A DNA stretch of 64,000 nucleotides from assembly GCA_016285515.1 (NCBI GenBank), contig JAEEQW010000012.1:1-64000 (forward strand). Reading direction: 5' to 3'. The translations under genes were made by a program, and so were the position numbers. Under the pieces are notes generated by a model, which saw only the letters and a program-made list of their open reading frames with translations, was not told the origin of the DNA and searched no databases. The stretch is from Bacteroidales bacterium (lineage in GTDB: Bacteria > Bacteroidota > Bacteroidia > Bacteroidales > BM520). Below are positions 12,179 through 51,253 of this stretch, one piece after another. Position 1 is the stretch's first letter; each line of letters opens with the position of its first letter.

Positions 12179-13996
12179 ATGAAAAAACTACTTTCAACGC
12201 TATTTGCGCTGGCCTTGTCCGCAGTGATGATGGCCGGCAATTTCGTGATGCTTCCTTATTCGGGACGTACCGAACTAGAGAAGCATTTTTCTGACCCGAA
12301 CCTAACGGTGCATTTCTACACCAATTCAGAAATCTTCGCCACGGCAGAACACTTCGATGCCGCAACTATGGTGATGCTTGACGAGAATGCCTTTTCAACC
12401 AACGACACTTACACGTTGGTATATTGTCCGAAAGAACAACAGCAGAGTTACGATGCGCTGTATGCCACACAAGATTATATCATAGTGAGTGGGGCTGCTA
12501 TGCCACATAAGAACGACGGCACAGTGGCAATCTTCAACAAAAAAGCGAGCCTGCCTCACCTCAACCGCGATTTTCCTGTGGTGACCGAAGAAAACCCAAC
12601 CATCCTCGAGATGTTGAGCCAAGTGAACTGTGATTCGATTGAGGCCACCGTGCAGCACCTTCAAAACTATGGCCACCGTTTGTGGAACTCCGACAATGCC
12701 TTTGCAGCTTCTGACTGGATTGCGGGTCGCATGCTGGCCCTCGGATTAGAGGTGGAGCAACAGCCTTTCTATGCCAGCACATGGTTTGGCAGTGGTGAGG
12801 CGGCACCCAATGTCATTGGTATCCAGCGCGGTACGCTCTATCCCGACATCTATGTGGTGTGCGGTAGCCATTTCGATTCATTCTCCTGGGAGGCCTATAG
12901 TGGTGGCCAGGCACCTGGTGCCGACGACAATGCCACGGGCGTGGCCAGTGTGCTGGAGAGCGCAAGAATCATGACACAGTATGAGTTTGAATACAGCATC
13001 ATCTATTGCGCTTTCGGCTGCGAGGAAATGGGCCTCTATGGCAGCGAGGCCTACGCTTCACGTTGCCAACAGCAAGGTATGGACATCATCGGTTACTTCA
13101 ACAACGACATGAATGGCTACCTCTATGGTAACCAAATCCACATCGACTGCATCTATCCTAATTCGGTACAGCCAATAGGCACTTATTACATGAATGTCGG
13201 CAGCGTTTATTATCCTGAGTTGCCCATCCGTCACGTCAACTTCAACGAAGGCGACAGCGACCACACTTCTTTTAATAATCACGGCTACATGGGCATCTAT
13301 CCTTTCGAGGATTATCAACACTACAGCCCATACATCCACACGACTAACGACTTGATTGGCCCCAGCGTGACTAGTTTCGCAATGTCGCAGCAGTATTGTC
13401 AGATGAACATCGCCTGCCTTGCCGAGATTGCCAATCCTGTGGAAGAAATACCGCATGTGTATTGTAATCCGGTGACTAATTTTTTTGTTGAACTTCCTGT
13501 GGGAAAAGAATTAAGTGCAGTTGTTTTGTGGTGGGAAGCTCCCGAAGAGGGCTCGACTGGCGAATTGGAGCATTTTGACGTTTATCGCGACAGTGTAATG
13601 ATTGCCACTGTTGAAATAAATCCTGACCCCACGTATCAATATAGTTATTTGGATACCATCACAGTTGGTGATTCGGCGGAGTACTTTATCATGGCAGTAT
13701 ATAGCGACGGTTGCGAGGCTCCTTCGCAAACCGAAATAGGCTATGGTATTGATGGAATTGAGGAGTCGGTGTCTCATGTTTTTGTCCATCCCAATCCTTC
13801 CAACGGCACTTTCAACATCAATCTCGGCAAAAGCCAATGGAACGTGGAAGTTTACGACATAATGGGCAGAAAGGTCTATGAAAGCCGCATGGAAGGCAAC
13901 TCCATCATCGACCTTGGACTATACCCAAAGGGATTGTATTTCCTGAAAGCCAATAACGAAAGCAGGACGCTGACGGCGAAGATGGTGCTTCGCTAA
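12179..13996 (+). CDS. Secreted M28-family zinc aminopeptidase with T9SS sorting domain
   Basis: A 605-residue protein with a signal peptide (about 1-20), an N-terminal inhibitor-like region, and a peptidase M28 domain (about 150-430). Expected metal/catalytic residues are visible: His231 (SHFDS), Asp249 (GADDNATG), Glu282-Glu283 (GCEEMG), Asp310 (NND) and His387 (YIHTTND). A fibronectin-like region follows, and the last 80 residues have the type IX secretion sorting pattern (HPNPSNGTFNI ... DIMGRKVYE ... GLYFLKA). It is therefore likely exported to the cell surface or medium to release amino acids from peptides, feeding the amino-acid fermentation suggested elsewhere in the window. Confidence 0.92.
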   Translation: MKKLLSTLFALALSAVMMAGNFVMLPYSGRTELEKHFSDPNLTVHFYTNSEIFATAEHFDAATMVMLDENAFSTNDTYTLVYCPKEQQQSYDALYATQDYIIVSGAAMPHKNDGTVAIFNKKASLPHLNRDFPVVTEENPTILEMLSQVNCDSIEATVQHLQNYGHRLWNSDNAFAASDWIAGRMLALGLEVEQQPFYASTWFGSGEAAPNVIGIQRGTLYPDIYVVCGSHFDSFSWEAYSGGQAPGADDNATGVASVLESARIMTQYEFEYSIIYCAFGCEEMGLYGSEAYASRCQQQGMDIIGYFNNDMNGYLYGNQIHIDCIYPNSVQPIGTYYMNVGSVYYPELPIRHVNFNEGDSDHTSFNNHGYMGIYPFEDYQHYSPYIHTTNDLIGPSVTSFAMSQQYCQMNIACLAEIANPVEEIPHVYCNPVTNFFVELPVGKELSAVVLWWEAPEEGSTGELEHFDVYRDSVMIATVEINPDPTYQYSYLDTITVGDSAEYFIMAVYSDGCEAPSQTEIGYGIDGIEESVSHVFVHPNPSNGTFNINLGKSQWNVEVYDIMGRKVYESRMEGNSIIDLGLYPKGLYFLKANNESRTLTAKMVLR

Positions 13997-41304: not shown

Positions 41305-44058
41305 ATGAAAAAAACACTATTCCTTGCGATAATGTTGTTTGCATTCAACATCCTAAATGCTCAAATATTAATCAATGAAGATTTTGAAACCGGCAACATT
41401 GATGGAGAGACACCAACCGGATGGATATGCGAAGACGGAGGCTGGTTATGCAACGAAGGCGACAAGACATACAACCGCAAAGCCCATTCCGGCTCCTGGT
41501 ACGTCACCGCCCAATATAACGACAACACCTGGATGTACAAAGAGATGAATGTCACCGAAGGACAGCTTTACAGAGTCTCCTTCTGGCATCTCACCAACGG
41601 CAACGACCATTTCACTTTCGAAATCAAGGCTGGGGAAATGCCCTACTCCGGAGCCATGGAATATCCTATACTTCCCCCCATGGAAATATCCAATACCGAA
41701 TATGAAAACACCGCAGCCGTATTCAATGCTCCCATTACCGGGACCATCTATATAGGATTTCATAGCACAGCGACATATTCACCGTGGTATCTGTGTATTG
41801 ATGACATAATCATCGAACAGACAGAGAGTTACAATTTCCGTACAGAAAATCTGACTCCAGACTCCATCCTATATATGAGTGAAACCGGAACTTTCCGTTT
41901 TAGCATACTCAACAACGGTGTCTTATCCGAAACTGTCAGTCTGACGAGTGAACCCAACATTCTACAGCCACAGTTTTACATTGGCAACCAGCAGGTCTCT
42001 TCAGTCACATTAGACCCTGATGCGACCGCATACGTTAATGCAGTGGTCACAATGCCGACTGAAGGCGTTTCACACAATGAGAATATTCTTCTTCAAATCA
42101 TAGCATCATCAACAAATACAGGTCATACCGAAAATATAGACTTCAATGTCACGGCAAAGGCACCTTATTTCGATTATCCTCTGACAGAAGGCTTTGAAGA
42201 CGAATCATTTCCTCCTGAAGGCTGGCGTGCCATCATCCTTGACGGCAGCTACAATTTCATCAGAGCCACCTCCGGCGCGCAGCCGACATGCGTTCCACAC
42301 GACGGAAGCAACGCAATGGCCATGTACAATTCGTTCTACGCTCATGCAGGGCAGGGAGCCATTCTGGTTTCCCCGAAACTGTCAACCAATTCAACCGACA
42401 ACATCGTTAGATTCTGGATATATCGAACAAACAACATTTACTATCGTGCCGACAAAATAAATGTTTACTTCAACGACACCCCGGACTTGGAGTCAGCCTC
42501 ACTGCTTGGTTCTGTTCACAGAGTTATCTCATTGGAACCTGTCGAGGATCACGATGACTGGTTTGAATATTCATATTCATTTGACAGTGAATACGATAAT
42601 GGTTATATCATTTTCGAAGCGTACAGCGACTATGGATGGAATATGTACCTTGACGACATCTTCATCAGCAATTCAAGTTCCGATAACAATCCTCCGGAAG
42701 TGATTTCATTATCAGGCAATCATACATACGCCGATGTTGACATGAACCTTGTATTGTGTGCCCGCGATGCATCAGACATGCCTGAAGAGCTGACAGCAAC
42801 ATATAACATAAACGGTACTGCCTACAACTTGGCTTTTGTCAGCAGCAAGAACAATCGCGGCGATCACTACTATACCGCTACAATTCCTGCCCAACCCAAC
42901 CATACATCCGGCACTATGACTGTAAACTTGGTGGATATAAACGGCAACAGCGCAGTTTCCGACCCGATGGATTTATCATGGGACTGGCAGGCACCCCTAT
43001 TGGAAGAAGGCTTTGAGGGCGAGACATTCCCACCTGAAGGATGGACACGCGAGGGTATGCCACTGACATGGATGCAATGGTCACGCTGGGGCACTATCAT
43101 ATATGACGACAGCGATGAAAACGAATTCATAGTAACTCCTCCTGAAGGCACAAAACAGGCTTGTCTCGAATGGGATTTTCAGGAAAACCCACAAGACGAA
43201 CATCTAATCACCCCACTGATACCAATCACACGTCCTACTGAACTGCAGTTTGAAACATTCGTACAACTCGGCACAATATACTACGACCATTTTGAAGTAC
43301 GGGTTTTCAACAGCAATGACAACTCATGGACAGTTCTTTGGGATGCATATTACCTTCCTGAAGGAATCAATATGTATGAGGAAACAGTACACATTAACCT
43401 GTCGCAGTTCATCGGCAGTTCCGTCAAAATCGACTGGCGCGGCTACAATTCATTGGGTACAAACCTTTGGTATTCATGGTTTATCGATAATGTCAAAGTC
43501 ATTCCTACCGACACCATTCAAAGTGGAACACCTGTTCTGAATCTGGCAAGTCTTACCGCTGACACAACCGTCAACATGAATTCCGATGCAGCACTTCGCT
43601 TCATGGTTTCCAACACCGGCGATGGTGATGACCAAATTGTATTCGCTCAAACAGAAAGCGAAATATCAGGTACGTTCTTCATTGATGGAACTCCGACCAA
43701 TACTCTTAATCTTCCTGCCGGACAGACAAAGGAAGGCTATCTTCTCGTCGCCATCCCCGCCGAAGGTTTCGACAACCAACAAACCCTATCCTTCACAGTA
43801 TCAGCCACTTCTCAAATCACTCAAGATGTCAAGAATGTGAATTTCAATGTAACTGTGATTAATCCAGCATTCCTTATCGGCGATGCCAACGGTGACGGTG
43901 CTGTTGATATAAGCGACATTACAACAGTTATATATTACATTTTCAATGGTTCCGCCCCGCAGTTCATTTTCGACAATGCAGATGCCAACCATGACGGCAT
44001 AATAAATGTGACAGATGTCATGGCGATAATAACTATTATAATGGGAAACAAAAGCTAA
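41305..44058 (+). CDS. Secreted multidomain protein: three choice-of-anchor J (adhesin) domains plus dockerin
   Basis: A 917-residue exported protein with signal peptide 1-19 (ILNAQ). Three jelly-roll choice-of-anchor J/cleaved-adhesin domains lie near 20-175 (NEDFETGNI), 286-460 (EGFEDESFPPEGW) and 562-735 (EGFEGETFPPEGW). A beta-sandwich module with the pattern DxTxxxxxxxxLRFxVSNxG occurs at about 178-285 and again at 745-855. The end (about 857-917) has two dockerin-type calcium loops, DANGDGAVDISD and DANHDGIINVTD. There is no type IX sorting domain, so the dockerin may serve for attachment. I chose the ATG at 41305 for its signal peptide. Probably surface adhesion or glycan/peptide handling; exact role unknown. 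Confidence 0.85.
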   Translation: MKKTLFLAIMLFAFNILNAQILINEDFETGNIDGETPTGWICEDGGWLCNEGDKTYNRKAHSGSWYVTAQYNDNTWMYKEMNVTEGQLYRVSFWHLTNGNDHFTFEIKAGEMPYSGAMEYPILPPMEISNTEYENTAAVFNAPITGTIYIGFHSTATYSPWYLCIDDIIIEQTESYNFRTENLTPDSILYMSETGTFRFSILNNGVLSETVSLTSEPNILQPQFYIGNQQVSSVTLDPDATAYVNAVVTMPTEGVSHNENILLQIIASSTNTGHTENIDFNVTAKAPYFDYPLTEGFEDESFPPEGWRAIILDGSYNFIRATSGAQPTCVPHDGSNAMAMYNSFYAHAGQGAILVSPKLSTNSTDNIVRFWIYRTNNIYYRADKINVYFNDTPDLESASLLGSVHRVISLEPVEDHDDWFEYSYSFDSEYDNGYIIFEAYSDYGWNMYLDDIFISNSSSDNNPPEVISLSGNHTYADVDMNLVLCARDASDMPEELTATYNINGTAYNLAFVSSKNNRGDHYYTATIPAQPNHTSGTMTVNLVDINGNSAVSDPMDLSWDWQAPLLEEGFEGETFPPEGWTREGMPLTWMQWSRWGTIIYDDSDENEFIVTPPEGTKQACLEWDFQENPQDEHLITPLIPITRPTELQFETFVQLGTIYYDHFEVRVFNSNDNSWTVLWDAYYLPEGINMYEETVHINLSQFIGSSVKIDWRGYNSLGTNLWYSWFIDNVKVIPTDTIQSGTPVLNLASLTADTTVNMNSDAALRFMVSNTGDGDDQIVFAQTESEISGTFFIDGTPTNTLNLPAGQTKEGYLLVAIPAEGFDNQQTLSFTVSATSQITQDVKNVNFNVTVINPAFLIGDANGDGAVDISDITTVIYYIFNGSAPQFIFDNADANHDGIINVTDVMAIITIIMGNKS

Positions 44059-44852
44059 ATTTGTTCTTTTGCAGGTTTTGGTTTGTAAAAGAACAAGAAG
44101 TAAACTCCGAGAAGAATAAACGGAATCGACAGCAACTGACCCATATTCAGGACCATATTGGTTTCAAAGTCAACCTGTGGATTCTTTATGAACTCAATGA
44201 AGAATCTGAAGACAAACACCAACACCAGGAACAATCCGGCAAGGAATCCTGTACGCAATTTTGTGCCTTTTTTCTGATAGAGACAAAAGAGAAGCACAAA
44301 TATAAGCAGATATGCCAACGATTCGTACAACTGTGTCGGATGCTTAGGCACAGTTTCACCGTTTCTTACAAATATCACGCCCCACGGCAATGTGGTCTCA
44401 ATACCGTAAATCTCTGAATTAAAGAAATTTCCGAGTCGAATAAAAGAACCGGCAAGTGCAACTCCTATAGCAAGTCTGTCAAGAAACCACACCCAATTGA
44501 AATCGTACTTTCTGGAAAGGATATAAACAGTAATCGGCAAAGCAACAGCTGCTCCATGACTTGCAAGACCGCCCTTCCACGTTTTGAGTATTTCCAAAGG
44601 ATTACTCAAATAATAATCGGGTTCATAAAACAGGCAATGGCCTAATCTTGCTCCCACTATCAGGGCAACTAATAACCATATAACCACCTTATTTAAGACA
44701 TCTTCGGCTCTGCCCTCTTTTTTCCAGGCATAACTTACAATAAGATAGCAAAGATATACGCCCAATGCAAAGCACACACCGTACCATGCAATATATAAGT
44801 TTGAATTAGGAAATATCCTCGGTTCAAAATTCCATACTATGTAATTCAACAT
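44055..44852 (-). CDS. lgt: Prolipoprotein diacylglyceryl transferase
   Basis: A 265-residue membrane enzyme that adds diacylglycerol to lipobox cysteines, needed for the several lipoproteins in this window. Seven membrane segments can be followed; signature residues are ARLGHCLFYEP, HGAAVALPI and RLGNFFNSEIYGIETTLPWGV. The start at 44852 is set by a promoter box at 44869-44876; an in-frame ATG at 44921 lies upstream of it. The stop codon overlaps that of the convergent adhesin gene by 4 bases. Confidence 0.95.
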   Translation of the reverse strand: MLNYIVWNFEPRIFPNSNLYIAWYGVCFALGVYLCYLIVSYAWKKEGRAEDVLNKVVIWLLVALIVGARLGHCLFYEPDYYLSNPLEILKTWKGGLASHGAAVALPITVYILSRKYDFNWVWFLDRLAIGVALAGSFIRLGNFFNSEIYGIETTLPWGVIFVRNGETVPKHPTQLYESLAYLLIFVLLFCLYQKKGTKLRTGFLAGLFLVLVFVFRFFIEFIKNPQVDFETNMVLNMGQLLSIPFILLGVYFLFFYKPKPAKEQI

Positions 44853-44868
44853 ACAAACAATTTTTTCA

Positions 44869-44876
44869 CAAAGATA
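44869..44876 (-). promoter_or_regulatory. -7 box for lgt
   Basis: TATCTTTG on the minus strand, 16 bases upstream of the lgt ATG. Confidence 0.5.
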
Positions 44877-44929
44877 TATTTTTTTCAAGAAATGATATGG
44901 ACATTTCATGTTTTTTGGCATTAATGGAT

Positions 44930-46021
44930 ATGAACGAAGAAATATTATACATGATTGCGTTAACGCAAGTGCCGAATATCGGCATCGTAAACGCTAAAAA
45001 GCTCATAGAATACTGCGGCAGTGCAAGAAACGTATTCCTTGAGAAAAAGAAGATATTGTCGAAAATTCACGGAATCGGTGACAGTATTATCGACTCTCTC
45101 AATTCCAAGAAGCCTTTGGAAGTAGCTGAAAAAGAAATCGAATATGCCACTAACAATTCCATCAGAATAGTTTCGTATATGGACACCAACTACCCTAAAA
45201 GGTTAAAATCGTGCCACGACTCACCTATAGTACTGTACATCAAGGGAAACGTACTTCCGCGGAAAGAGAAGATGCTGGCAGTGGTAGGCACACGCAATGC
45301 AACGGAGTATGGTCGCAAGGCATGCAACAAAATCATAAGTGAGTTGAAAGACCTTGATGCCGGCATAGTCAGTGGACTCGCATACGGCATAGACACTTGC
45401 GCACATACCGCAGCGTTGTCGGAAGGTCTGTCAACCTTTGCAGTACTTGGAACGGGATTCAAGACGATTTATCCATATACCAACCTTCATCTGGCTCAAG
45501 AAATAGCGGATACCGGCAGCCTCATCACTGAATTCCTGTCCGACACAAAACCTGACCGCGAAAACTTCCCTAAAAGAAACCGAATCATCGCTGGAATTTC
45601 AGACGCCGTACTTGTAATTGAAGCGTCTGACAAAGGAGGTGCACTGATTACCGCAAATATCGCAAATTCCTATAACAGGGAAGTCTTTGCAATTCCAGGC
45701 AGAATAAATGACCTTTTTTCTGTTGGATGCAACAATCTTATTTACAGCAATAAAGCATTAATTACAACTTCCGCATCAGACATTATCAACAGTCTGAACT
45801 GGGACACAGACACAAAAACAAAAAAGGCAACAAATATTTCTAACCTCAACCCCACCCAGCAGGCAATCTATTCTCTAATATCGGAAAACGGAACCTGCAA
45901 TGTGGATTTCATAGCAAAAAAAATCAACATAGCCATCAATAAACTTTCATTTGAACTCCTTGATATGGAACTCAACGGACTGATAAGCTGTCTTCCAGGC
46001 AAAAATTATGACTGTATTTGA
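44930..46021 (+). CDS. dprA: DNA-processing protein DprA
   Basis: A 363-residue protein that binds incoming single-stranded DNA and loads RecA. An N-terminal helix-hairpin-helix/SAM-like region (IALTQVPNIGIVNAKKLIEYCG), the Rossmann DprA core (VVGTRNATEYG; GLAYGIDTCAHTAAL; LGTGFKTIYP; FPKRNRIIAGIS; AFAIPG-like VFAIPGRI) and a C-terminal winged helix (TCNVDFIAKKINIAINKLSFEL) are all present. ATGs at 44924 and 44930 are both possible; 44930 is chosen. The promoter must lie within the start region of the divergent lgt gene. Confidence 0.95.
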   Translation: MNEEILYMIALTQVPNIGIVNAKKLIEYCGSARNVFLEKKKILSKIHGIGDSIIDSLNSKKPLEVAEKEIEYATNNSIRIVSYMDTNYPKRLKSCHDSPIVLYIKGNVLPRKEKMLAVVGTRNATEYGRKACNKIISELKDLDAGIVSGLAYGIDTCAHTAALSEGLSTFAVLGTGFKTIYPYTNLHLAQEIADTGSLITEFLSDTKPDRENFPKRNRIIAGISDAVLVIEASDKGGALITANIANSYNREVFAIPGRINDLFSVGCNNLIYSNKALITTSASDIINSLNWDTDTKTKKATNISNLNPTQQAIYSLISENGTCNVDFIAKKINIAINKLSFELLDMELNGLISCLPGKNYDCI

Positions 46022-46039
46022 TAAATCAACTCATTTTGC

Positions 46040-46047
46040 TACCTTTG
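46040..46047 (+). promoter_or_regulatory. -7 box for the nitrilase-family gene
   Basis: TACCTTTG, 25 bases before the start at 46073. Confidence 0.5.
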
Positions 46048-46072
46048 CAATTGTTATTATTCTTTACATATC

Positions 46073-46891
46073 ATGAAGCATATTTGTTCTGTCGCAACAG
46101 TCCAGTTCGCACCTGTTTACGATGAAATAGCCCAAAATTTCCAGCAAATTGAATCACTTGTCAAAGACCTTGATGATGACATAGTCGTTTTGCCTGAACT
46201 GTGTACGACAGGCTACTCTTTTCTCAACACAAAAGAGGTCGAGGGTTTGGCGCTTACAGCAGAAGAATTTGCAGATTTTCTGGGCGACTACTCAGTGAAA
46301 AACAATAATGTGATTATTGCCGGATTTGCTGAAAAAGATGAAGACAGATTTTACAACTCCGCTATTGCATTAATGCCTGACAAGTCATACATTGTTTATC
46401 GCAAAACACATCTGTTCTATAAGGAAAAAATTTGCTTTTCGTATGGTGATACAGGATTTTTCGTTTTCAACCATCCGAACCTGAACTGCAGAATAGGTAT
46501 GATGATATGTTACGACTGGCGGTTTCCTGAAAGCGCAAGGACACTGGCTTTGAAAGGAGCCGACATAATAACATGTTCAGCCAATCTGGTCACGCCATAT
46601 TGGGAAACGGGCCTGAAATCGCGTGCACTGGAAAACAATGTCTTTGTTGCCGTTTCAAACAGATATGGCAGTGAATCACGCCAACTTCCTGACGGAACCA
46701 TGCAAACTCTCACATTCACAGGCAAATCAGTCATTTACGACAATCATGGTATAACATTGCAACAAGCTGCAATCAACGGCGATGCCATAATAAGAGCCAC
46801 CTTTGACACCAACATCACCAGAAACAAATCATTTGACGAGCTTGATGACATATTCAATGACCGCAGACCAACATTCTACATGAATGAATAA
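46073..46891 (+). CDS. Carbon-nitrogen hydrolase (nitrilase superfamily)
   Basis: A 272-residue cytoplasmic enzyme with the catalytic triad Glu42 (VLPELCTTGYS), Lys111 (YRKTHLF) and Cys146 (GMMICYDWRFPE). The superfamily includes omega-amidases, carbamoylputrescine amidases and Nit proteins; which amide is cleaved cannot be decided. Monocistronic. The 184-base gap after it holds only the promoter of the next gene. Confidence 0.9.
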   Translation: MKHICSVATVQFAPVYDEIAQNFQQIESLVKDLDDDIVVLPELCTTGYSFLNTKEVEGLALTAEEFADFLGDYSVKNNNVIIAGFAEKDEDRFYNSAIALMPDKSYIVYRKTHLFYKEKICFSYGDTGFFVFNHPNLNCRIGMMICYDWRFPESARTLALKGADIITCSANLVTPYWETGLKSRALENNVFVAVSNRYGSESRQLPDGTMQTLTFTGKSVIYDNHGITLQQAAINGDAIIRATFDTNITRNKSFDELDDIFNDRRPTFYMNE

Positions 46892-47014
46892 CCGCTTCTG
46901 TTGAACTGACCGTCACAACAGTCGGGACCATAAGATAAACCTAAAACTCGCATTAATTAGCGCAATCATATAATATTTTAAAAGTCGTTTTAACAGTTAT
47001 TTTTGAAATATTAT

Positions 47015-47022
47015 TAAATTTG
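47015..47022 (+). promoter_or_regulatory. -7 box for the secreted hydrolase cluster
   Basis: TAAATTTG, 53 bases before the ATG at 47076. Confidence 0.45.
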
Positions 47023-47075
47023 CATTTTAAGTATTTCTTTAACAAATAAATCAAATAAAATATAATTAGGGCAAA

Positions 47076-47996
47076 ATGAGAAAAGGCATACTCCAACTCA
47101 TATTGTTGTTATTGCTATGTATATCAGCATCAGCACAAGACAAGACGTTTACATTCGTCACACGTGACACACTTGACTTGAAACTTGACATCTACGTACC
47201 TGACACACCACGCAATGATTCTGCATGTCTTGTATATATTTTCGGAGGCGGTTTTGTCACCGGCGCACGCAATGACAAATATGCCATAGATTTCTGTTCT
47301 CAACTTGCAGACGAAGGATTCGTTGTTGCTGCGATAGAATATCGGTTAGGATTCAAAGGACATAAAGTAAAAGGGTATTTGGAGGCTGCCAATGTTTTTG
47401 AAAAAGTCATCAACGATGCTTCCGAAGACTGTGCGGCGGCAGTCGCTTTTCTCATAAGACATTCCGATGATTTGCGCATCAACCCTGACAACATTTTTCT
47501 TATAGGCTCCAGTGCCGGTGCCATCACCGCTCTCGAAACCGATTATCTGCACGCCAATCACAGCAGCATAACTTCTGACCTGCCGGATGACTTCAGTTTT
47601 GCAGGGATAATATCCTTTGCAGGAGGCATATTCACGAGTGATGCACCTGTAGTTTATAAGTATCGTGAGCCGTCACCCACAATGTTTTTACATGGAACAG
47701 ATGATAAAGTGGTCAATTACAACAAGATACAATTTTTCAAAAAAGGTCTTTTTGGGTCAAACCAACTGGTGAAACGCTTTAAGAAATTCAATTATCAGTA
47801 TGTATTTCTGCGTTTCGAAGGTAATGCCCACGATGTGGCAATGCTTCCGATAAAATCAGTACCGGAAATCGTATTGTTTGCAGAGCTCTGTCTTAACAAA
47901 GACACCAGGAAAAATTTCGATCTCGATGCCACAATTACCATAAAAAACTACAGCAGCGATAAGTGGAAAAAAATTAATTTGAAAAATTTATATTAA
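47076..47996 (+). CDS. Secreted alpha/beta-hydrolase (esterase/lipase-like)
   Basis: A 306-residue exported hydrolase: signal peptide 1-20, oxyanion motif FGGGFVTG (His of the usual HGGGF replaced by Phe57), nucleophile Ser146 in IGSSAGAI, an acid in HGTDDKVV and a histidine in EGNAHDVAM. The fold matches the BD-FAE/carboxylesterase group that removes ester side groups from polysaccharides or peptides. The dockerin protein gene follows after 30 bases and may be co-transcribed. The substrate is not known, and the missing first His may alter oxyanion binding. Confidence 0.82.
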   Translation: MRKGILQLILLLLLCISASAQDKTFTFVTRDTLDLKLDIYVPDTPRNDSACLVYIFGGGFVTGARNDKYAIDFCSQLADEGFVVAAIEYRLGFKGHKVKGYLEAANVFEKVINDASEDCAAAVAFLIRHSDDLRINPDNIFLIGSSAGAITALETDYLHANHSSITSDLPDDFSFAGIISFAGGIFTSDAPVVYKYREPSPTMFLHGTDDKVVNYNKIQFFKKGLFGSNQLVKRFKKFNYQYVFLRFEGNAHDVAMLPIKSVPEIVLFAELCLNKDTRKNFDLDATITIKNYSSDKWKKINLKNLY

Positions 47997-48026
47997 AAAT
48001 TATAATAAATCACATAAATAAAAATC

Positions 48027-48803
48027 ATGAAAAGGTTAAGTCTGATAATTGCTTTAATGTTCTTGACAATCAGTGCTTTTGCACAGTCAGTTACAGTAGC
48101 TACTACCGTTTATTACGTCAGTGGGGAGACGGCTGTATTCACTCTCACTGAGGGAAACGATAGTATTTATTTCGATGGTGACAACACTATCATCATCAAT
48201 GCTGCCAATATGGTCACTGAGATTCCTATTGATGATATCAGAAAAATTCTATTCGAGGAAATCGAACTGAACCCTGTTTTCCAATTAGAAGCTCTTACTC
48301 CAGACACTACAGCTTATCTGGGAAGTGACATCACCCTGCGATTCAAGGTCTCTAACGATGGTCTTGTAGAAGATGAAATATCATTAACACAAACTGCCGG
48401 AGAAATCATCGGTACTTTCTATGTTGACGATGTTCAAACCACCACACTGACATTGGGTGCAAATCAATCAGTGGAAGGCTATCTGCTCGTTTCCATTCCT
48501 GAATCGGGCTATGAAATCGATGAAGCCCTAACATTCGCAATTACTGCAACTTCAGAAGTCACTGGTAACTCTGAAGAAGCTGATTTTGAAATCACTATTA
48601 TCAATTCTGAATTTCTTCTCGGCGACGCCAATAATGATGGCATTGTCAATATCTCTGATATAGTTGTTGTTATCAACTACATTATGAATGGTTCCGCTTC
48701 CCCGTTTGTATTCGAAAAAGCAGACGTCAATGGCGATAGCATCATTAACGTATTGGATATAACAGGTATCGTAAACATTATCTATTCGAGTAAAAGCAAT
48801 TAA
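48027..48803 (+). CDS. Secreted protein with beta-sandwich module and dockerin-type repeat
   Basis: A 258-residue exported protein with signal peptide 1-19 (ISAFAQ), then an N-terminal segment ending IPIDDIRKILFEE. A beta-sandwich module follows at about 90-190 (DTTAYLGSDITLRFKVSNDG), the same module seen twice in the protein at 41305. The C-terminal dockerin-like pair is DANNDGIVNISD and DVNGDSIINVLD. No catalytic domain is visible. It may be a small scaffold or cell-surface component working with its neighbours (inference). Confidence 0.8.
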   Translation: MKRLSLIIALMFLTISAFAQSVTVATTVYYVSGETAVFTLTEGNDSIYFDGDNTIIINAANMVTEIPIDDIRKILFEEIELNPVFQLEALTPDTTAYLGSDITLRFKVSNDGLVEDEISLTQTAGEIIGTFYVDDVQTTTLTLGANQSVEGYLLVSIPESGYEIDEALTFAITATSEVTGNSEEADFEITIINSEFLLGDANNDGIVNISDIVVVINYIMNGSASPFVFEKADVNGDSIINVLDITGIVNIIYSSKSN

Positions 48804-48850
48804 TAAAAATGCAGAAAAACAGACAATACAATTCAAAAACTTTTGAAACT

Positions 48851-51253
48851 ATGAGAAGATTATTATTTTCGCTGAGTTGCATTTTTCTCTTCCTTTTTGC
48901 GAATGCACAGGATGAAGTCAGATACATATACTTACACAATTCAGGAGACACGCTTGCCAATCAGGCTGTTTCAAATATCAACAGCATAAAATTCGCGAAC
49001 AAGCCGGCAAGTGCGATATTCACTTTAACCAGTGGGCAATTATCCTACTTGCTGACACAAATCGACAGTCTGACATTCGGTATGGCTAACGTAAGTTCTG
49101 ATGCCGTCACAATTGATTTTTCAAACAGCAGTGTGACCGTCAACAACCCATATTCCAATGATGGCATTATCATCACAACCGATGGCACTGACGTCACAAT
49201 CGAAAACAACAGACCCAACACGACATTCTCCCTCAGCGGCAGTTGTTCCAACGGTTCACTTGATTTTACAGGTACAGAGAACATATATCTGATTCTCAAT
49301 TCGCTTGAATTAACCCATACTTCAGGTCCTGTACTCAAAATTGAAGAAAATGCCGATGCATACATCACTCTTAATGGCACATCAGTGCTGTCAGACGGTT
49401 CAAGCGGCAAAAATGCTGCCATTACGGCCGAAGGTTCCCTCTATTTCTACGCAGGTACCGGTGAGGTACAGATTTCCGGTTTAAAGAAACATGCTGTCAA
49501 AGTAACTGGTGATATCGCCATTTCATCAGGCACTGTACAGATTACAGAAGCATCAAGCGATGGTCTGCACTTGGACGGCGATTTCACACTGTCGGGAAAC
49601 GGCAATCTCGTTATTCTTGAAACTTCGGGAGACGGCGTGGACTGCGGAAGCAACATTTACATCAACGGCGGCAATCTCAATCTGACGACATCCGCAGAAG
49701 ATGTGAAAGGACTGAAAGCAGCTTATAACATCTATTTCAATGGCGGTGAATCGGTCATCACCACTTCCGGTGCTGAAACCAAAGCCATCAAATGCGACAG
49801 CGCGATTTACATCAACAACAGCAGTACCGTCCTCACCCTCATTCTCAGCAATACGGGCGTTAACGGCATTTCCTGCGACAGTATCGTTAGCATCACTGGC
49901 GGAGACATCACCATCAATTCGACATCTGAAGATGGTAAAGGAATCAAGGCTGACATAGGTGTTATCATTTCAGGCGGTAACATCGAAATCAACCATTCTG
50001 GAGACATGTCAAAGGGTATTTCCACAAATGGCTACACCAATATTTCCGGTGGTGTCTTTACCATAACCGCATCTGGGGGGACAGTTCTTGAAGCCTCAGG
50101 TTCAGGATACGAGCCTTCATACTGCAGCGGTATCAAAAGTGATGGCGACATAACCATCAGCGGCGGTACTTTCAACATTACACTTCCAACATCAAATAAC
50201 GGCGGGAAGGCTATCAGTTCCGATGCCAATATCACCATCAGCGATGGTACTTTCACATTGACAACAAACGGTGCAGGCGCCGTATATACCAATCCTAATG
50301 GAATTACAGACTCATACACCTGTTCATGTATAAAATGCGACGGCAACTTGACCATCACAGGCGGTAATATTACCTGTACAAGTACGGGATCAGGCGGTAA
50401 GGGTATCAAACTCGATGGTGTGGCGACTTTCGGCACTATAGGCGGAAATGATGACGACTTCATCTTAACAATCACCACATCAGGTGAAAGATTTTATGTG
50501 TCAGGCAGCGGCTGGAACATGGACTATGCTAATCCAAAAGCCCTGAAATCCGACGGTACTATGACAATTAATAGCGGACACATCTCAAGCAACTGCCTCC
50601 AAACACAAAACGAAGGAGGTGAAGCCATTGAATGTGAATCTGTTATGACTATCAATGGCGGCATTATTGAGGCCTTTTCAAACAAGGACGATGGTATGAA
50701 TCCTAACCAGTTGATTGTCAACGATGGTAAAATTTACACCTGTAGCAACAACGGTGACGGTATAGATGTCAACGGTCCTATGACATATAACGGCGGCATG
50801 GTTATAGCTACTGGCTCTGCAATGCCTGAATGCGGTCTTGACTGCGATCAAAACACATTTACGATTACCGGTGGTATAATAATTGGTGCAGGAGGCAGCA
50901 CCAGTAACCCTACAACAAGCGTATGCACACAACCCACTCTAAAAATTAACACCAGATCAGGCTATGCTATCCAGGTTCTTTCAGGAAGCGATGTAATCTG
51001 TACCTACCAATGTCCGACCATCAGCGGCGGCGGCCCAGGCGGTGGCAGAAATTTAGTTTTACTCTTGAGCCATCCTTCCTTCTCAGTAGGTTCTTCCTAT
51101 ACCGTCAAATATGGTGGCACCATCAGTGGTGGCACTTATTGGCACGGATATTACACCGACGCCACCTACTCAGGTGGCCAATCAACCACAGTCACAATAT
51201 CATCAATGTTAACCAACGTCAACGCAGGCGGTGGCGGCTGGCCGCCATTCTAA
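48851..51253 (+). CDS. Secreted carbohydrate-binding beta-helix protein (Cthe_2159/DUF4353-like)
   Basis: An 800-residue exported protein with signal peptide 1-20 (LFANAQ). An N-terminal part ending IDSLTF is followed by a long run of beta-helix turns with repeats such as DGDITISGGTFNI, SDANITISDGTFTL and CDGNLTITGGNI, and a glycine-rich end (GGGPGGG; GGGGWPPF). This matches the Cthe_2159 family, whose clostridial member binds polygalacturonic acid with calcium. It follows two exported proteins in the same direction, so a polysaccharide-related surface role is likely. ATG 48851 is chosen because the upstream in-frame ATG (48809) would put 14 polar residues before the signal peptide. Confidence 0.85.
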   Translation: MRRLLFSLSCIFLFLFANAQDEVRYIYLHNSGDTLANQAVSNINSIKFANKPASAIFTLTSGQLSYLLTQIDSLTFGMANVSSDAVTIDFSNSSVTVNNPYSNDGIIITTDGTDVTIENNRPNTTFSLSGSCSNGSLDFTGTENIYLILNSLELTHTSGPVLKIEENADAYITLNGTSVLSDGSSGKNAAITAEGSLYFYAGTGEVQISGLKKHAVKVTGDIAISSGTVQITEASSDGLHLDGDFTLSGNGNLVILETSGDGVDCGSNIYINGGNLNLTTSAEDVKGLKAAYNIYFNGGESVITTSGAETKAIKCDSAIYINNSSTVLTLILSNTGVNGISCDSIVSITGGDITINSTSEDGKGIKADIGVIISGGNIEINHSGDMSKGISTNGYTNISGGVFTITASGGTVLEASGSGYEPSYCSGIKSDGDITISGGTFNITLPTSNNGGKAISSDANITISDGTFTLTTNGAGAVYTNPNGITDSYTCSCIKCDGNLTITGGNITCTSTGSGGKGIKLDGVATFGTIGGNDDDFILTITTSGERFYVSGSGWNMDYANPKALKSDGTMTINSGHISSNCLQTQNEGGEAIECESVMTINGGIIEAFSNKDDGMNPNQLIVNDGKIYTCSNNGDGIDVNGPMTYNGGMVIATGSAMPECGLDCDQNTFTITGGIIIGAGGSTSNPTTSVCTQPTLKINTRSGYAIQVLSGSDVICTYQCPTISGGGPGGGRNLVLLLSHPSFSVGSSYTVKYGGTISGGTYWHGYYTDATYSGGQSTTVTISSMLTNVNAGGGGWPPF

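What the first reader, a model, noticed from the sequence alone, without database searches (positions are those of the whole stretch)
41305..51253. Shared beta-sandwich plus dockerin modules in a Bacteroidales surface cluster
The same beta-sandwich module occurs twice in the 917-residue adhesin and once in the 258-residue protein. Both proteins end in dockerin-type calcium repeats, and a pectin-binding-type beta-helix protein is nearby. No cohesin is encoded here. Dockerin-bearing proteins without type IX signals suggest an attachment system not well described for Bacteroidales.
Basis: partly seen in the sequence, partly recalled or inferred. Interest (0 to 1): 0.58.

Follow-up and report, generated by a model that had tools for sequence, protein, structure and literature searches.

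The report
Cohesin-dockerin protease complex in Bacteroidales
Two secreted proteins in this gut-bacterium window carry docking tags that fit sockets encoded elsewhere in the same genome, pointing to a cellulosome-like scaffold that gathers protein-digesting enzymes at the cell surface, and leaving open how tagged proteins without the usual export signal cross the outer membrane.

Summary
In detail: a beta-sandwich module occurs twice in the 917-aa protein and once in the 258-aa protein, both end in a two-loop type I dockerin, neither has a type IX (T9SS) tail, and no cohesin lies in the window. The window is a small sample of a larger system. The 2.58-Mb genome encodes 37 dockerin proteins and 24 cohesins in six proteins: three scaffoldins with T9SS tails (8, 5 and 7 cohesins), a C10 peptidase with at least 2, a cohesin-dockerin-T9SS adaptor and a one-cohesin lipoprotein. 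Twelve of the 37 are peptidases, seven of them gingipain-like C25; one is a Porphyromonas-type arginine deiminase; none has a glycosidase domain over cut-off. Of eight secreted C25 proteases, five have a dockerin instead of a T9SS tail, two have both, one has only the T9SS tail. Best reading: a T9SS-anchored, cellulosome-like complex for protein degradation. Precedents are Ca. Stygibacter (Cloacimonadota) and the planctosome. In the order, 57 of 65 dockerin genomes also have cohesins. The beta-sandwich is an ordinary Ig-type spacer found only in these two proteins. How dockerin-only cargo crosses the outer membrane is unresolved; riding on a cohesin partner through T9SS is untested.

The parts
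41305..44058 (+). 917-aa secreted adhesin-like protein: signal peptide, choice-of-anchor J domains, two Ig-like modules, C-terminal dockerin, no T9SS tail
41824..42174 (+). Ig-like beta-sandwich module, copy 1a (aa 174-290), divergent
42181..42666 (+). best of three choice-of-anchor J stretches (NF038128, whole-protein E 3.7e-29)
43522..43875 (+). Ig-like beta-sandwich module, copy 1b (aa 740-857), next to the dockerin
43879..44034 (+). type I dockerin, two intact calcium loops 33 residues apart
47076..47996 (+). secreted alpha/beta-hydrolase (BD-FAE, E 1e-21), first gene of the tandem
48027..48803 (+). 258-aa secreted protein: small N-terminal domain, Ig-like module, C-terminal dockerin, no T9SS tail
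48267..48617 (+). Ig-like beta-sandwich module, copy 2 (aa 81-197); predicted fold mostly pLDDT 80-95
48618..48770 (+). type I dockerin; matches solved cellulosomal dockerins
48809..51253 (+). secreted beta-helix protein of the Cthe_2159 family (PF14262), no dockerin, no T9SS tail; start may be 48848

Best explanation
The dockerin tails of the two window proteins are docking tags for cohesin modules encoded elsewhere in the same genome. SHOWN by sequence: 37 dockerin proteins; 24 cohesins in six proteins; three multi-cohesin scaffoldins with T9SS sorting tails; a T9SS translocon (SprA); peptidases as the largest cargo class; frequent replacement of the T9SS tail by a dockerin on gingipain-like proteases. 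INFERRED: scaffoldins are exported and anchored by T9SS, and calcium-dependent cohesin-dockerin pairing then gathers proteases, adhesins (the 917-aa protein), spacer or adaptor proteins (perhaps the 258-aa protein) and esterases into a cell-surface, cellulosome-like complex that digests protein rather than cellulose. UNRESOLVED: how dockerin-only proteins (29 of 37) cross the outer membrane. The leading guess is co-export with a cohesin partner that bears the T9SS tail.
For: Dockerins: 37 proteins, all over the Pfam cut-off in the genome search (one of them, C52:85312-89250, falls under it in the protein scan, 21.0 against 22.9 bits), all with two intact loops (34 of 37 by script; the other 3 read by eye). 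Loop residues 10-11 and 17-18, the contact positions of type I dockerins (recalled), are similar throughout. Cohesins: 24; their profile hits the solved scaffoldin cohesin 5n5p, E 9.8e-8; the predicted lipoprotein cohesin has solved cohesins as its top Foldseek hits, E about 2e-6. T9SS: SprA 545 bits; 73 T9SS tails over cut-off; tails on ScaA, ScaB, ScaC. Cargo: all 37 scanned: 7 C25, 2 C10, 2 S8, 1 M14 = 12 peptidases; 1 PAD. C25 tally: of 10, two PorU-like, 5 dockerin only, 2 both tails, 1 T9SS tail only. Same organism: contig C25 holds ScaA, ScaB and SprA; a second, named assembly (RGIG7150, water buffalo abomasum) has the lipoprotein cohesin with identical sequence beside the same S8-dockerin gene, and the C10-cohesin protein. 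Co-occurrence in 295 genomes of the order: any cohesin in 57 of 65 genomes with dockerin, against 35 of 230 without (odds ratio about 40).
Against: No binding was tested. No cohesin-dockerin complex could be modelled. Co-occurrence is not corrected for shared ancestry, and in some genomes cohesin and dockerin lie in one open frame. 29 of 37 dockerin proteins have no T9SS tail, so without a further step they should stop in the periplasm. The cohesin lipoprotein lacks the acidic residues after its cysteine that mark surface lipoproteins in Bacteroidota (rule recalled), so it may face the periplasm. Two well-covered genomes of the same genus (G005, G007) have neither dockerin (E <= 1e-5) nor cohesin, so the system is dispensable. 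The named carrier is a draft assembly from a metagenome. Close precedents exist in other phyla.
Confidence: 0.72

Rival explanations
1. Periplasmic or inner-leaflet system: dockerin-only proteins stay in the periplasm, held by the single-cohesin lipoprotein, and the T9SS scaffoldins serve other partners.
For: 29 of 37 dockerin proteins have no T9SS tail; the lipoprotein cohesin is the direct neighbour of a dockerin S8 protease in two genomes and has no acidic surface-export motif after its cysteine (motif rule recalled).
Against: C25, C10 and S8 proteases with propeptides, arginine deiminase, BspA-type LRR and adhesin domains are typical surface proteins (family knowledge); one lipoprotein cohesin would have to serve 29 proteins while 20 scaffoldin cohesins of the same family stand outside.
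Confidence: 0.13
2. Dockerin repeats act only as calcium-stabilised C-terminal caps or are relics, with no partner; the cohesins bind something else.
For: No binding data; 8 of 65 dockerin genomes in the order have no cohesin detected, each with a single dockerin; G027 and G147 have this kind of cohesin without dockerin.
Against: 37 dockerins with intact loops and similar putative contact residues beside 24 cohesins in one genome; 57 of 65 co-occurrence; solved-structure matches on both sides.
Confidence: 0.08
3. Ordinary cellulosome for plant fibre in a rumen bacterium.
For: Named relative from a ruminant stomach; cohesin-dockerin architecture; BD-FAE esterase and Cthe_2159-type protein beside the 258-aa gene.
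Against: No glycoside hydrolase or carbohydrate-binding family over its cut-off in any of the 37 dockerin proteins; no cellulose-binding module in ScaA, ScaB or ScaC; 12 peptidases instead.
Confidence: 0.05

Closest known systems
Cellulosome-like complex of Ca. Stygibacter (Cloacimonadota), PMC8542988 (passages read)
   Same: Scaffoldin-like protein with tandem cohesins and a T9SS-type C-terminal domain; C-terminal dockerins on S8 and C25 gingipain-like peptidases with signal peptides.
   Different: Other phylum; one scaffoldin with CBM2/CBM3; GH18 and GH57 among the cargo; in the passages read, no lipoprotein cohesin, no arginine deiminase and no dockerin proteins that also bear the T9SS tail.
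Planctosome of Nemodlikiaceae (Planctomycetes), PMC6461901 (passages read)
   Same: Non-cellulosomal cohesin-dockerin machinery proposed for polypeptide degradation; includes an M14 peptidase and an adaptor with both dockerin and cohesin.
   Different: Anchor by a lamin tail domain, no T9SS; M12B and M14 cargo; fewer components in the passages read.
Porphyromonas gingivalis surface gingipain complex (recalled; T9SS papers seen only in the search listing)
   Same: C25 proteases, arginine deiminase and adhesin domains held together on the surface of a Bacteroidales cell.
   Different: There the cargo proteins carry the T9SS tail; here 5 of 8 secreted C25 proteases and the deiminase carry a dockerin instead.
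Clostridial cellulosome and single-cohesin anchoring scaffoldins of ruminococci (general knowledge)
   Same: Multi-cohesin scaffoldins, dockerin cargo, a single-cohesin anchor protein.
   Different: No cellulases, no CBM, Gram-negative T9SS anchoring.
Mucinolysome of Limousia (PMC12997984, search listing and start of abstract only)
   Same: Cellulosome-like complex with a non-cellulosic substrate in gut bacteria.
   Different: Mucin as the substrate; nothing on T9SS in what was seen.

Membership tests
Type I dockerin (PF00404) | profile match over cut-off | tested here: met
   both window proteins, 32.9 and 39.7 bits against 22.9
Type I dockerin (PF00404) | duplicated intact calcium-binding loops | tested here: met
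   both window proteins; genome-wide 34 of 37 by script, the other 3 by eye
Type I dockerin (PF00404) | calcium-dependent binding to a cohesin | not testable with these tools
   needs protein chemistry
Cohesin | sequence relation to known cohesins | tested here: met
   Pfam over cut-off for 4 of 9 places; profile to 5n5p, E 9.8e-8
Cohesin | cohesin fold | tested here: met
   model of the identical lipoprotein from L090, pTM 0.63, mean pLDDT 65 (58-87 by ten-residue block in the folded part); top hits are cohesins
Cellulosome | multi-cohesin scaffoldin plus dockerin enzymes | tested here: met
   ScaA 8, ScaB 5, ScaC 7 cohesins
Cellulosome | dockerin-bearing glycoside hydrolases or cellulases | tested here: not met
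   none over cut-off in 37 of 37 dockerin proteins
Cellulosome | cellulose-binding module on the scaffoldin | tested here: not met
   none in ScaA, ScaB, ScaC
T9SS substrate (the two window proteins) | C-terminal T9SS sorting domain | tested here: not met
   the only C50 hit is 13784-13990
T9SS substrate (ScaA, ScaB, ScaC) | signal peptide and T9SS sorting domain, translocon in the genome | tested here: met
   signal peptides judged by eye and hydropathy only
Protease complex of the Stygibacter kind | T9SS-tailed scaffoldin and dockerin peptidases in one genome | tested here: met

The most novel reading that the evidence does not exclude
The dockerin is a second, non-covalent sorting tag of the type IX system: proteins without a T9SS tail bind, in the periplasm, a cohesin-bearing partner that has the tail, and are carried through the translocon with it. 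The dockerin / cohesin-like domain / T9SS tail found at the end of eight proteins here would be the carrier form, and the dockerin-only proteins the passengers.
Probability: 0.22. Interest if true: 0.9.

Novelty: new variant of a known kind. Interest (0 to 1): 0.66.

Why it matters
Two papers read in passages state that Bacteroidetes genomes lack cohesins and dockerins (PMC5831590; PMC7768429), while another reports dockerins, and cohesins in certain species, in rumen Bacteroidetes (PMC6071333). The genome searched here has both in number, and the standard Pfam cohesin model fails on two of its three scaffoldins as whole proteins and on 10 of the 19 order genomes that the genome's own cohesin profile finds, which would help to explain the published statements. 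If the complex is real, Bacteroidales can build protease assemblies on a scaffold rather than exporting each enzyme with its own T9SS tail. It also makes an open question testable: can T9SS export a protein that lacks the sorting domain, by way of a bound partner?

Tried and rejected
Beta-sandwich module as the key: rejected. A three-copy profile finds no fourth copy in the genome, no other dockerin protein has it, and the predicted fold resembles many Ig-like/ASH domains with no specific partner.

Pectin or cellulose theme: rejected for the dockerin set.

Contamination of the assembly: judged unlikely, because one contig holds two scaffoldins and SprA, and a second assembly repeats three of the genes.

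Domain between dockerin and T9SS tail in the eight double-tailed proteins: no Pfam family. Profile comparison with the genome's cohesins gives 83% probability, E 9e-6 for a single pair, against 0.4% for a control module; suggestive only, and my cohesin profile itself finds the region in one of the eight at 0.4 bits and not at all in the others.

Dockerin tree: too few columns to resolve; it shows only that double-tailed proteins are not clustered (7 changes, shuffled mean 7.4, 210 of 500 shuffles as low; at least 3 changes forced by well-supported branches).

The first loop-motif script used a wrong motif and found nothing; corrected.

Other dockerin-rich genomes: 40 stretches were fetched from eight other genomes of the order. 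The strict two-loop motif found 22 dockerin proteins in the first 20 stretches and only 2 in the second 20; the genomes of the second set, G100, G101, G122 and G201 in particular, seem to have a more divergent dockerin that my motif misses, so their cargo was not read. Eight of these proteins and two cohesin proteins were scanned with Pfam, of 24 dockerin proteins found.

Searching genome contigs with all 16 cohesins failed for lack of conserved stretches; a subset of seven worked. Of its six loci I read two (L089, L090); the other four (three Neomarinimicrobiota, one Prevotella, weaker matches) were not examined.

Full report
Observation. The two window proteins are as described. The 917-aa protein (41305-44058) has a signal peptide, three stretches of the choice-of-anchor J family, two copies of a beta-sandwich module and a C-terminal dockerin; the 258-aa protein (48027-48803) has a signal peptide, a small N-terminal domain, one copy of the module and a C-terminal dockerin. 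The modules are alike at 54, 34 and 26 of 117 positions. Both dockerins pass the Pfam cut-off, have two intact loops, and the smaller protein's dockerin matches solved cellulosomal dockerins. The T9SS tail model finds nothing on either. The window's only T9SS-tail hit is on an M28 peptidase at 12179-13996. No cohesin is in the window.

What else the genome holds. The window is contig C50 of a 2.58-Mb, 54-contig genome, 98% complete. Pfam Dockerin_1 rings at 39 places. Two of these are in one protein and one is a partial hit under the cut-off in a 63-aa frame, which I dropped; that leaves 37 proteins. Five are cut at their 5' end by a contig end and one starts inside a truncated frame; the other 31 all begin with a hydrophobic signal-like stretch (hydropathy and eye only, no signal-peptide program). 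Eight of the 37 also end in a T9SS tail, 29 do not. In 28 of the 29 the dockerin is at the C terminus, in one (C38:14471-15604) at the N terminus.

Cohesins. Pfam finds 9 cohesin places, 4 over cut-off. A profile of 16 of the genome's own copies finds 24 in six proteins: ScaA (C25:211476-218873, 2466 aa, 8), ScaB (C25:219021-222737, 1239 aa, 5), ScaC (C18:49621-60933, 3771 aa, 7; found only by this profile), a C10 peptidase running off a contig end (C45:83872-86604, at least 2), C47:32639-37675 (1, together with a dockerin and a T9SS tail, an adaptor by its make-up) and a lipoprotein (C19:29774-30307, 1). ScaA, ScaB and ScaC are chains of cohesins and InlB-type repeats that end in a T9SS tail. 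That these are cohesins rests on the profile match to the solved scaffoldin cohesin 5n5p (E 9.8e-8) and on the predicted fold of the lipoprotein, whose best Foldseek matches are cohesins from Clostridium perfringens, C. acetobutylicum, Bacteroides cellulosolvens and Archaeoglobus fulgidus (E 2e-6 to 6e-6). The model is middling (mean pLDDT 65, pTM 0.63, two-row alignment).

Cargo. All 37 dockerin proteins were scanned against Pfam. Over cut-off: 7 Peptidase_C25, 2 Peptidase_C10, 2 Peptidase_S8, 1 Peptidase_M14, 1 Porphyromonas-type peptidyl-arginine deiminase, 1 alpha/beta-hydrolase, 2 Omp28, 2 BspA-type LRR, 2 with sortilin or BNR repeats, 1 right-handed beta-helix; the rest have only repeats, Ig-like or similar domains, or nothing. 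No glycoside hydrolase or carbohydrate-binding family passes its cut-off. The genome has 10 C25 domains: two PorU-like proteins side by side at C19:16897-24042, just before a PorV-like gene (names by resemblance, not searched), one T9SS-tailed protease (C47:48974-52804), five dockerin-only proteases and two with both tails. On contig C2 four C25 genes stand in tandem; the double-tailed one is identical at 595 of 1270 and 625 of 1285 aligned columns (gaps counted) to two dockerin-only neighbours up to the dockerin, where those stop and it goes on into the T9SS tail.

The double tail. In all eight double-tailed proteins about 120 residues lie between dockerin and T9SS tail. They form one family, have no Pfam name, and may be a shortened relative of the cohesins (hhalign 83%; control 0.4%). 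In another family of the order (G054) two proteins have a full cohesin in that place (101 and 97 bits). Dockerins with and without this tail are mixed on the poorly resolved dockerin tree. So the two endings look like alternatives that are exchanged freely.

How it most likely works. Shown: the parts list and the tails. Inferred: the scaffoldins leave the cell through T9SS and stay on the surface; dockerin proteins attach to them by calcium-dependent pairing; the result is a surface complex of proteases with adhesin domains, of the same general purpose as the gingipain complex of Porphyromonas (recalled) but assembled on scaffolds. In it the 917-aa protein would be an adhesin subunit. The 258-aa protein has no catalytic family and may be a small adaptor or a binding subunit for the neighbouring beta-helix protein; that is a guess. 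Not explained: how 29 proteins without a T9SS tail reach the surface. Work in F. johnsoniae uses a reporter lacking the T9SS domain as its control (PMC10994853, figure-legend passages), so a free ride cannot be assumed. Co-export bound to a cohesin partner is the most economical guess, since eight proteins here carry dockerin, cohesin-like domain and T9SS tail in one chain; the periplasmic alternative is kept as a rival.

Distribution. In the window's family 5 of 8 genomes, this one included, have a Pfam cohesin (E <= 1e-3). In an even draw of 295 genomes of the order, 82 have a Pfam cohesin (E <= 1e-3), 65 a dockerin (E <= 1e-5) and 19 this genome's kind of cohesin (E <= 1e-6). Of those 19, 17 also have dockerins; of the 65 dockerin genomes 57 have a cohesin of either kind, against 35 of 230 without dockerins; the 8 exceptions have one dockerin each. 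These counts ignore shared ancestry. Two same-genus genomes, G005 and G007, have none. In an even draw of 395 genomes of the phylum, 8 have this kind of cohesin at E <= 1e-10, this one included. Dockerin peptidases occur in other families too: a C10 with both tails in G054 (L114), a dockerin-only S8 in G151 (L121), and in G220 an S8 with both tails directly followed by two cohesin genes that Pfam's cohesin model does not recognise (L135). The only named carrier examined is Bacteroidales bacterium RGIG7150 from water buffalo abomasum; its lipoprotein cohesin is identical to this genome's.

Known work. Nine literature searches were run, with terms joining cohesin, dockerin, scaffoldin, gingipain, T9SS or type IX secretion, Bacteroidetes, Bacteroidales, Bacteroidota, cellulosome-like, protease, planctosome. 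They cover open-licence papers only. Passages were read in PMC8542988, PMC10266427, PMC5831590, PMC11557425, PMC8067321, PMC7768429, PMC6071333, PMC10994853, PMC9763041, PMC9177762, PMC12871809 (reference list only) and PMC6461901. In those passages none describes a T9SS-anchored cohesin scaffold with protease cargo in Bacteroidales. The nearest are Ca. Stygibacter and the planctosome. Dockerins in rumen Bacteroidetes bins, and cohesins in certain Bacteroidetes species, are already reported in PMC6071333, there read as cellulosome parts. Hence 'new variant of a known kind'.

Scores. The parts list is solid; function and export are inference. Interest 0.66.

Noticed in passing
L103-L107 (genome G275) and L025:10475-11605 (own genome): Dockerins at the N terminus, straight after the signal peptide, on proteins whose C-terminal part looks like the Fibrobacter major paralogous domain (name recalled, not searched); seems a second dockerin architecture in the order.
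   Followed up: partly
own genome C19:16897-24042 (L144): Two PorU-like C25 proteins in tandem next to a PorV-like gene, about 4-6 kb from the cohesin lipoprotein; a similar order is seen in RGIG7150 (L090).
   Followed up: no
window 48027-48260 and 48848-49050: The N-terminal parts of the 258-aa protein and of the beta-helix protein both end in a short Ile-Asp-rich stretch followed by Leu/Phe and may share a small domain.
   Followed up: no
window 12179-13996: M28 peptidase with a T9SS tail, the only T9SS-tailed protein detected in the window.
   Followed up: partly
genomes G027 and G147: Carry this kind of cohesin (3 and 6 matches) but no dockerin at E <= 1e-5; what their cohesins bind is open.
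   Followed up: no
genomes G100, G101, G122, G201 (L123-L132, L137-L142): Many dockerin matches starting at model position 8 and very long frames (up to about 8,000 aa) with cohesins; a more divergent dockerin type that my strict motif misses.
   Followed up: no
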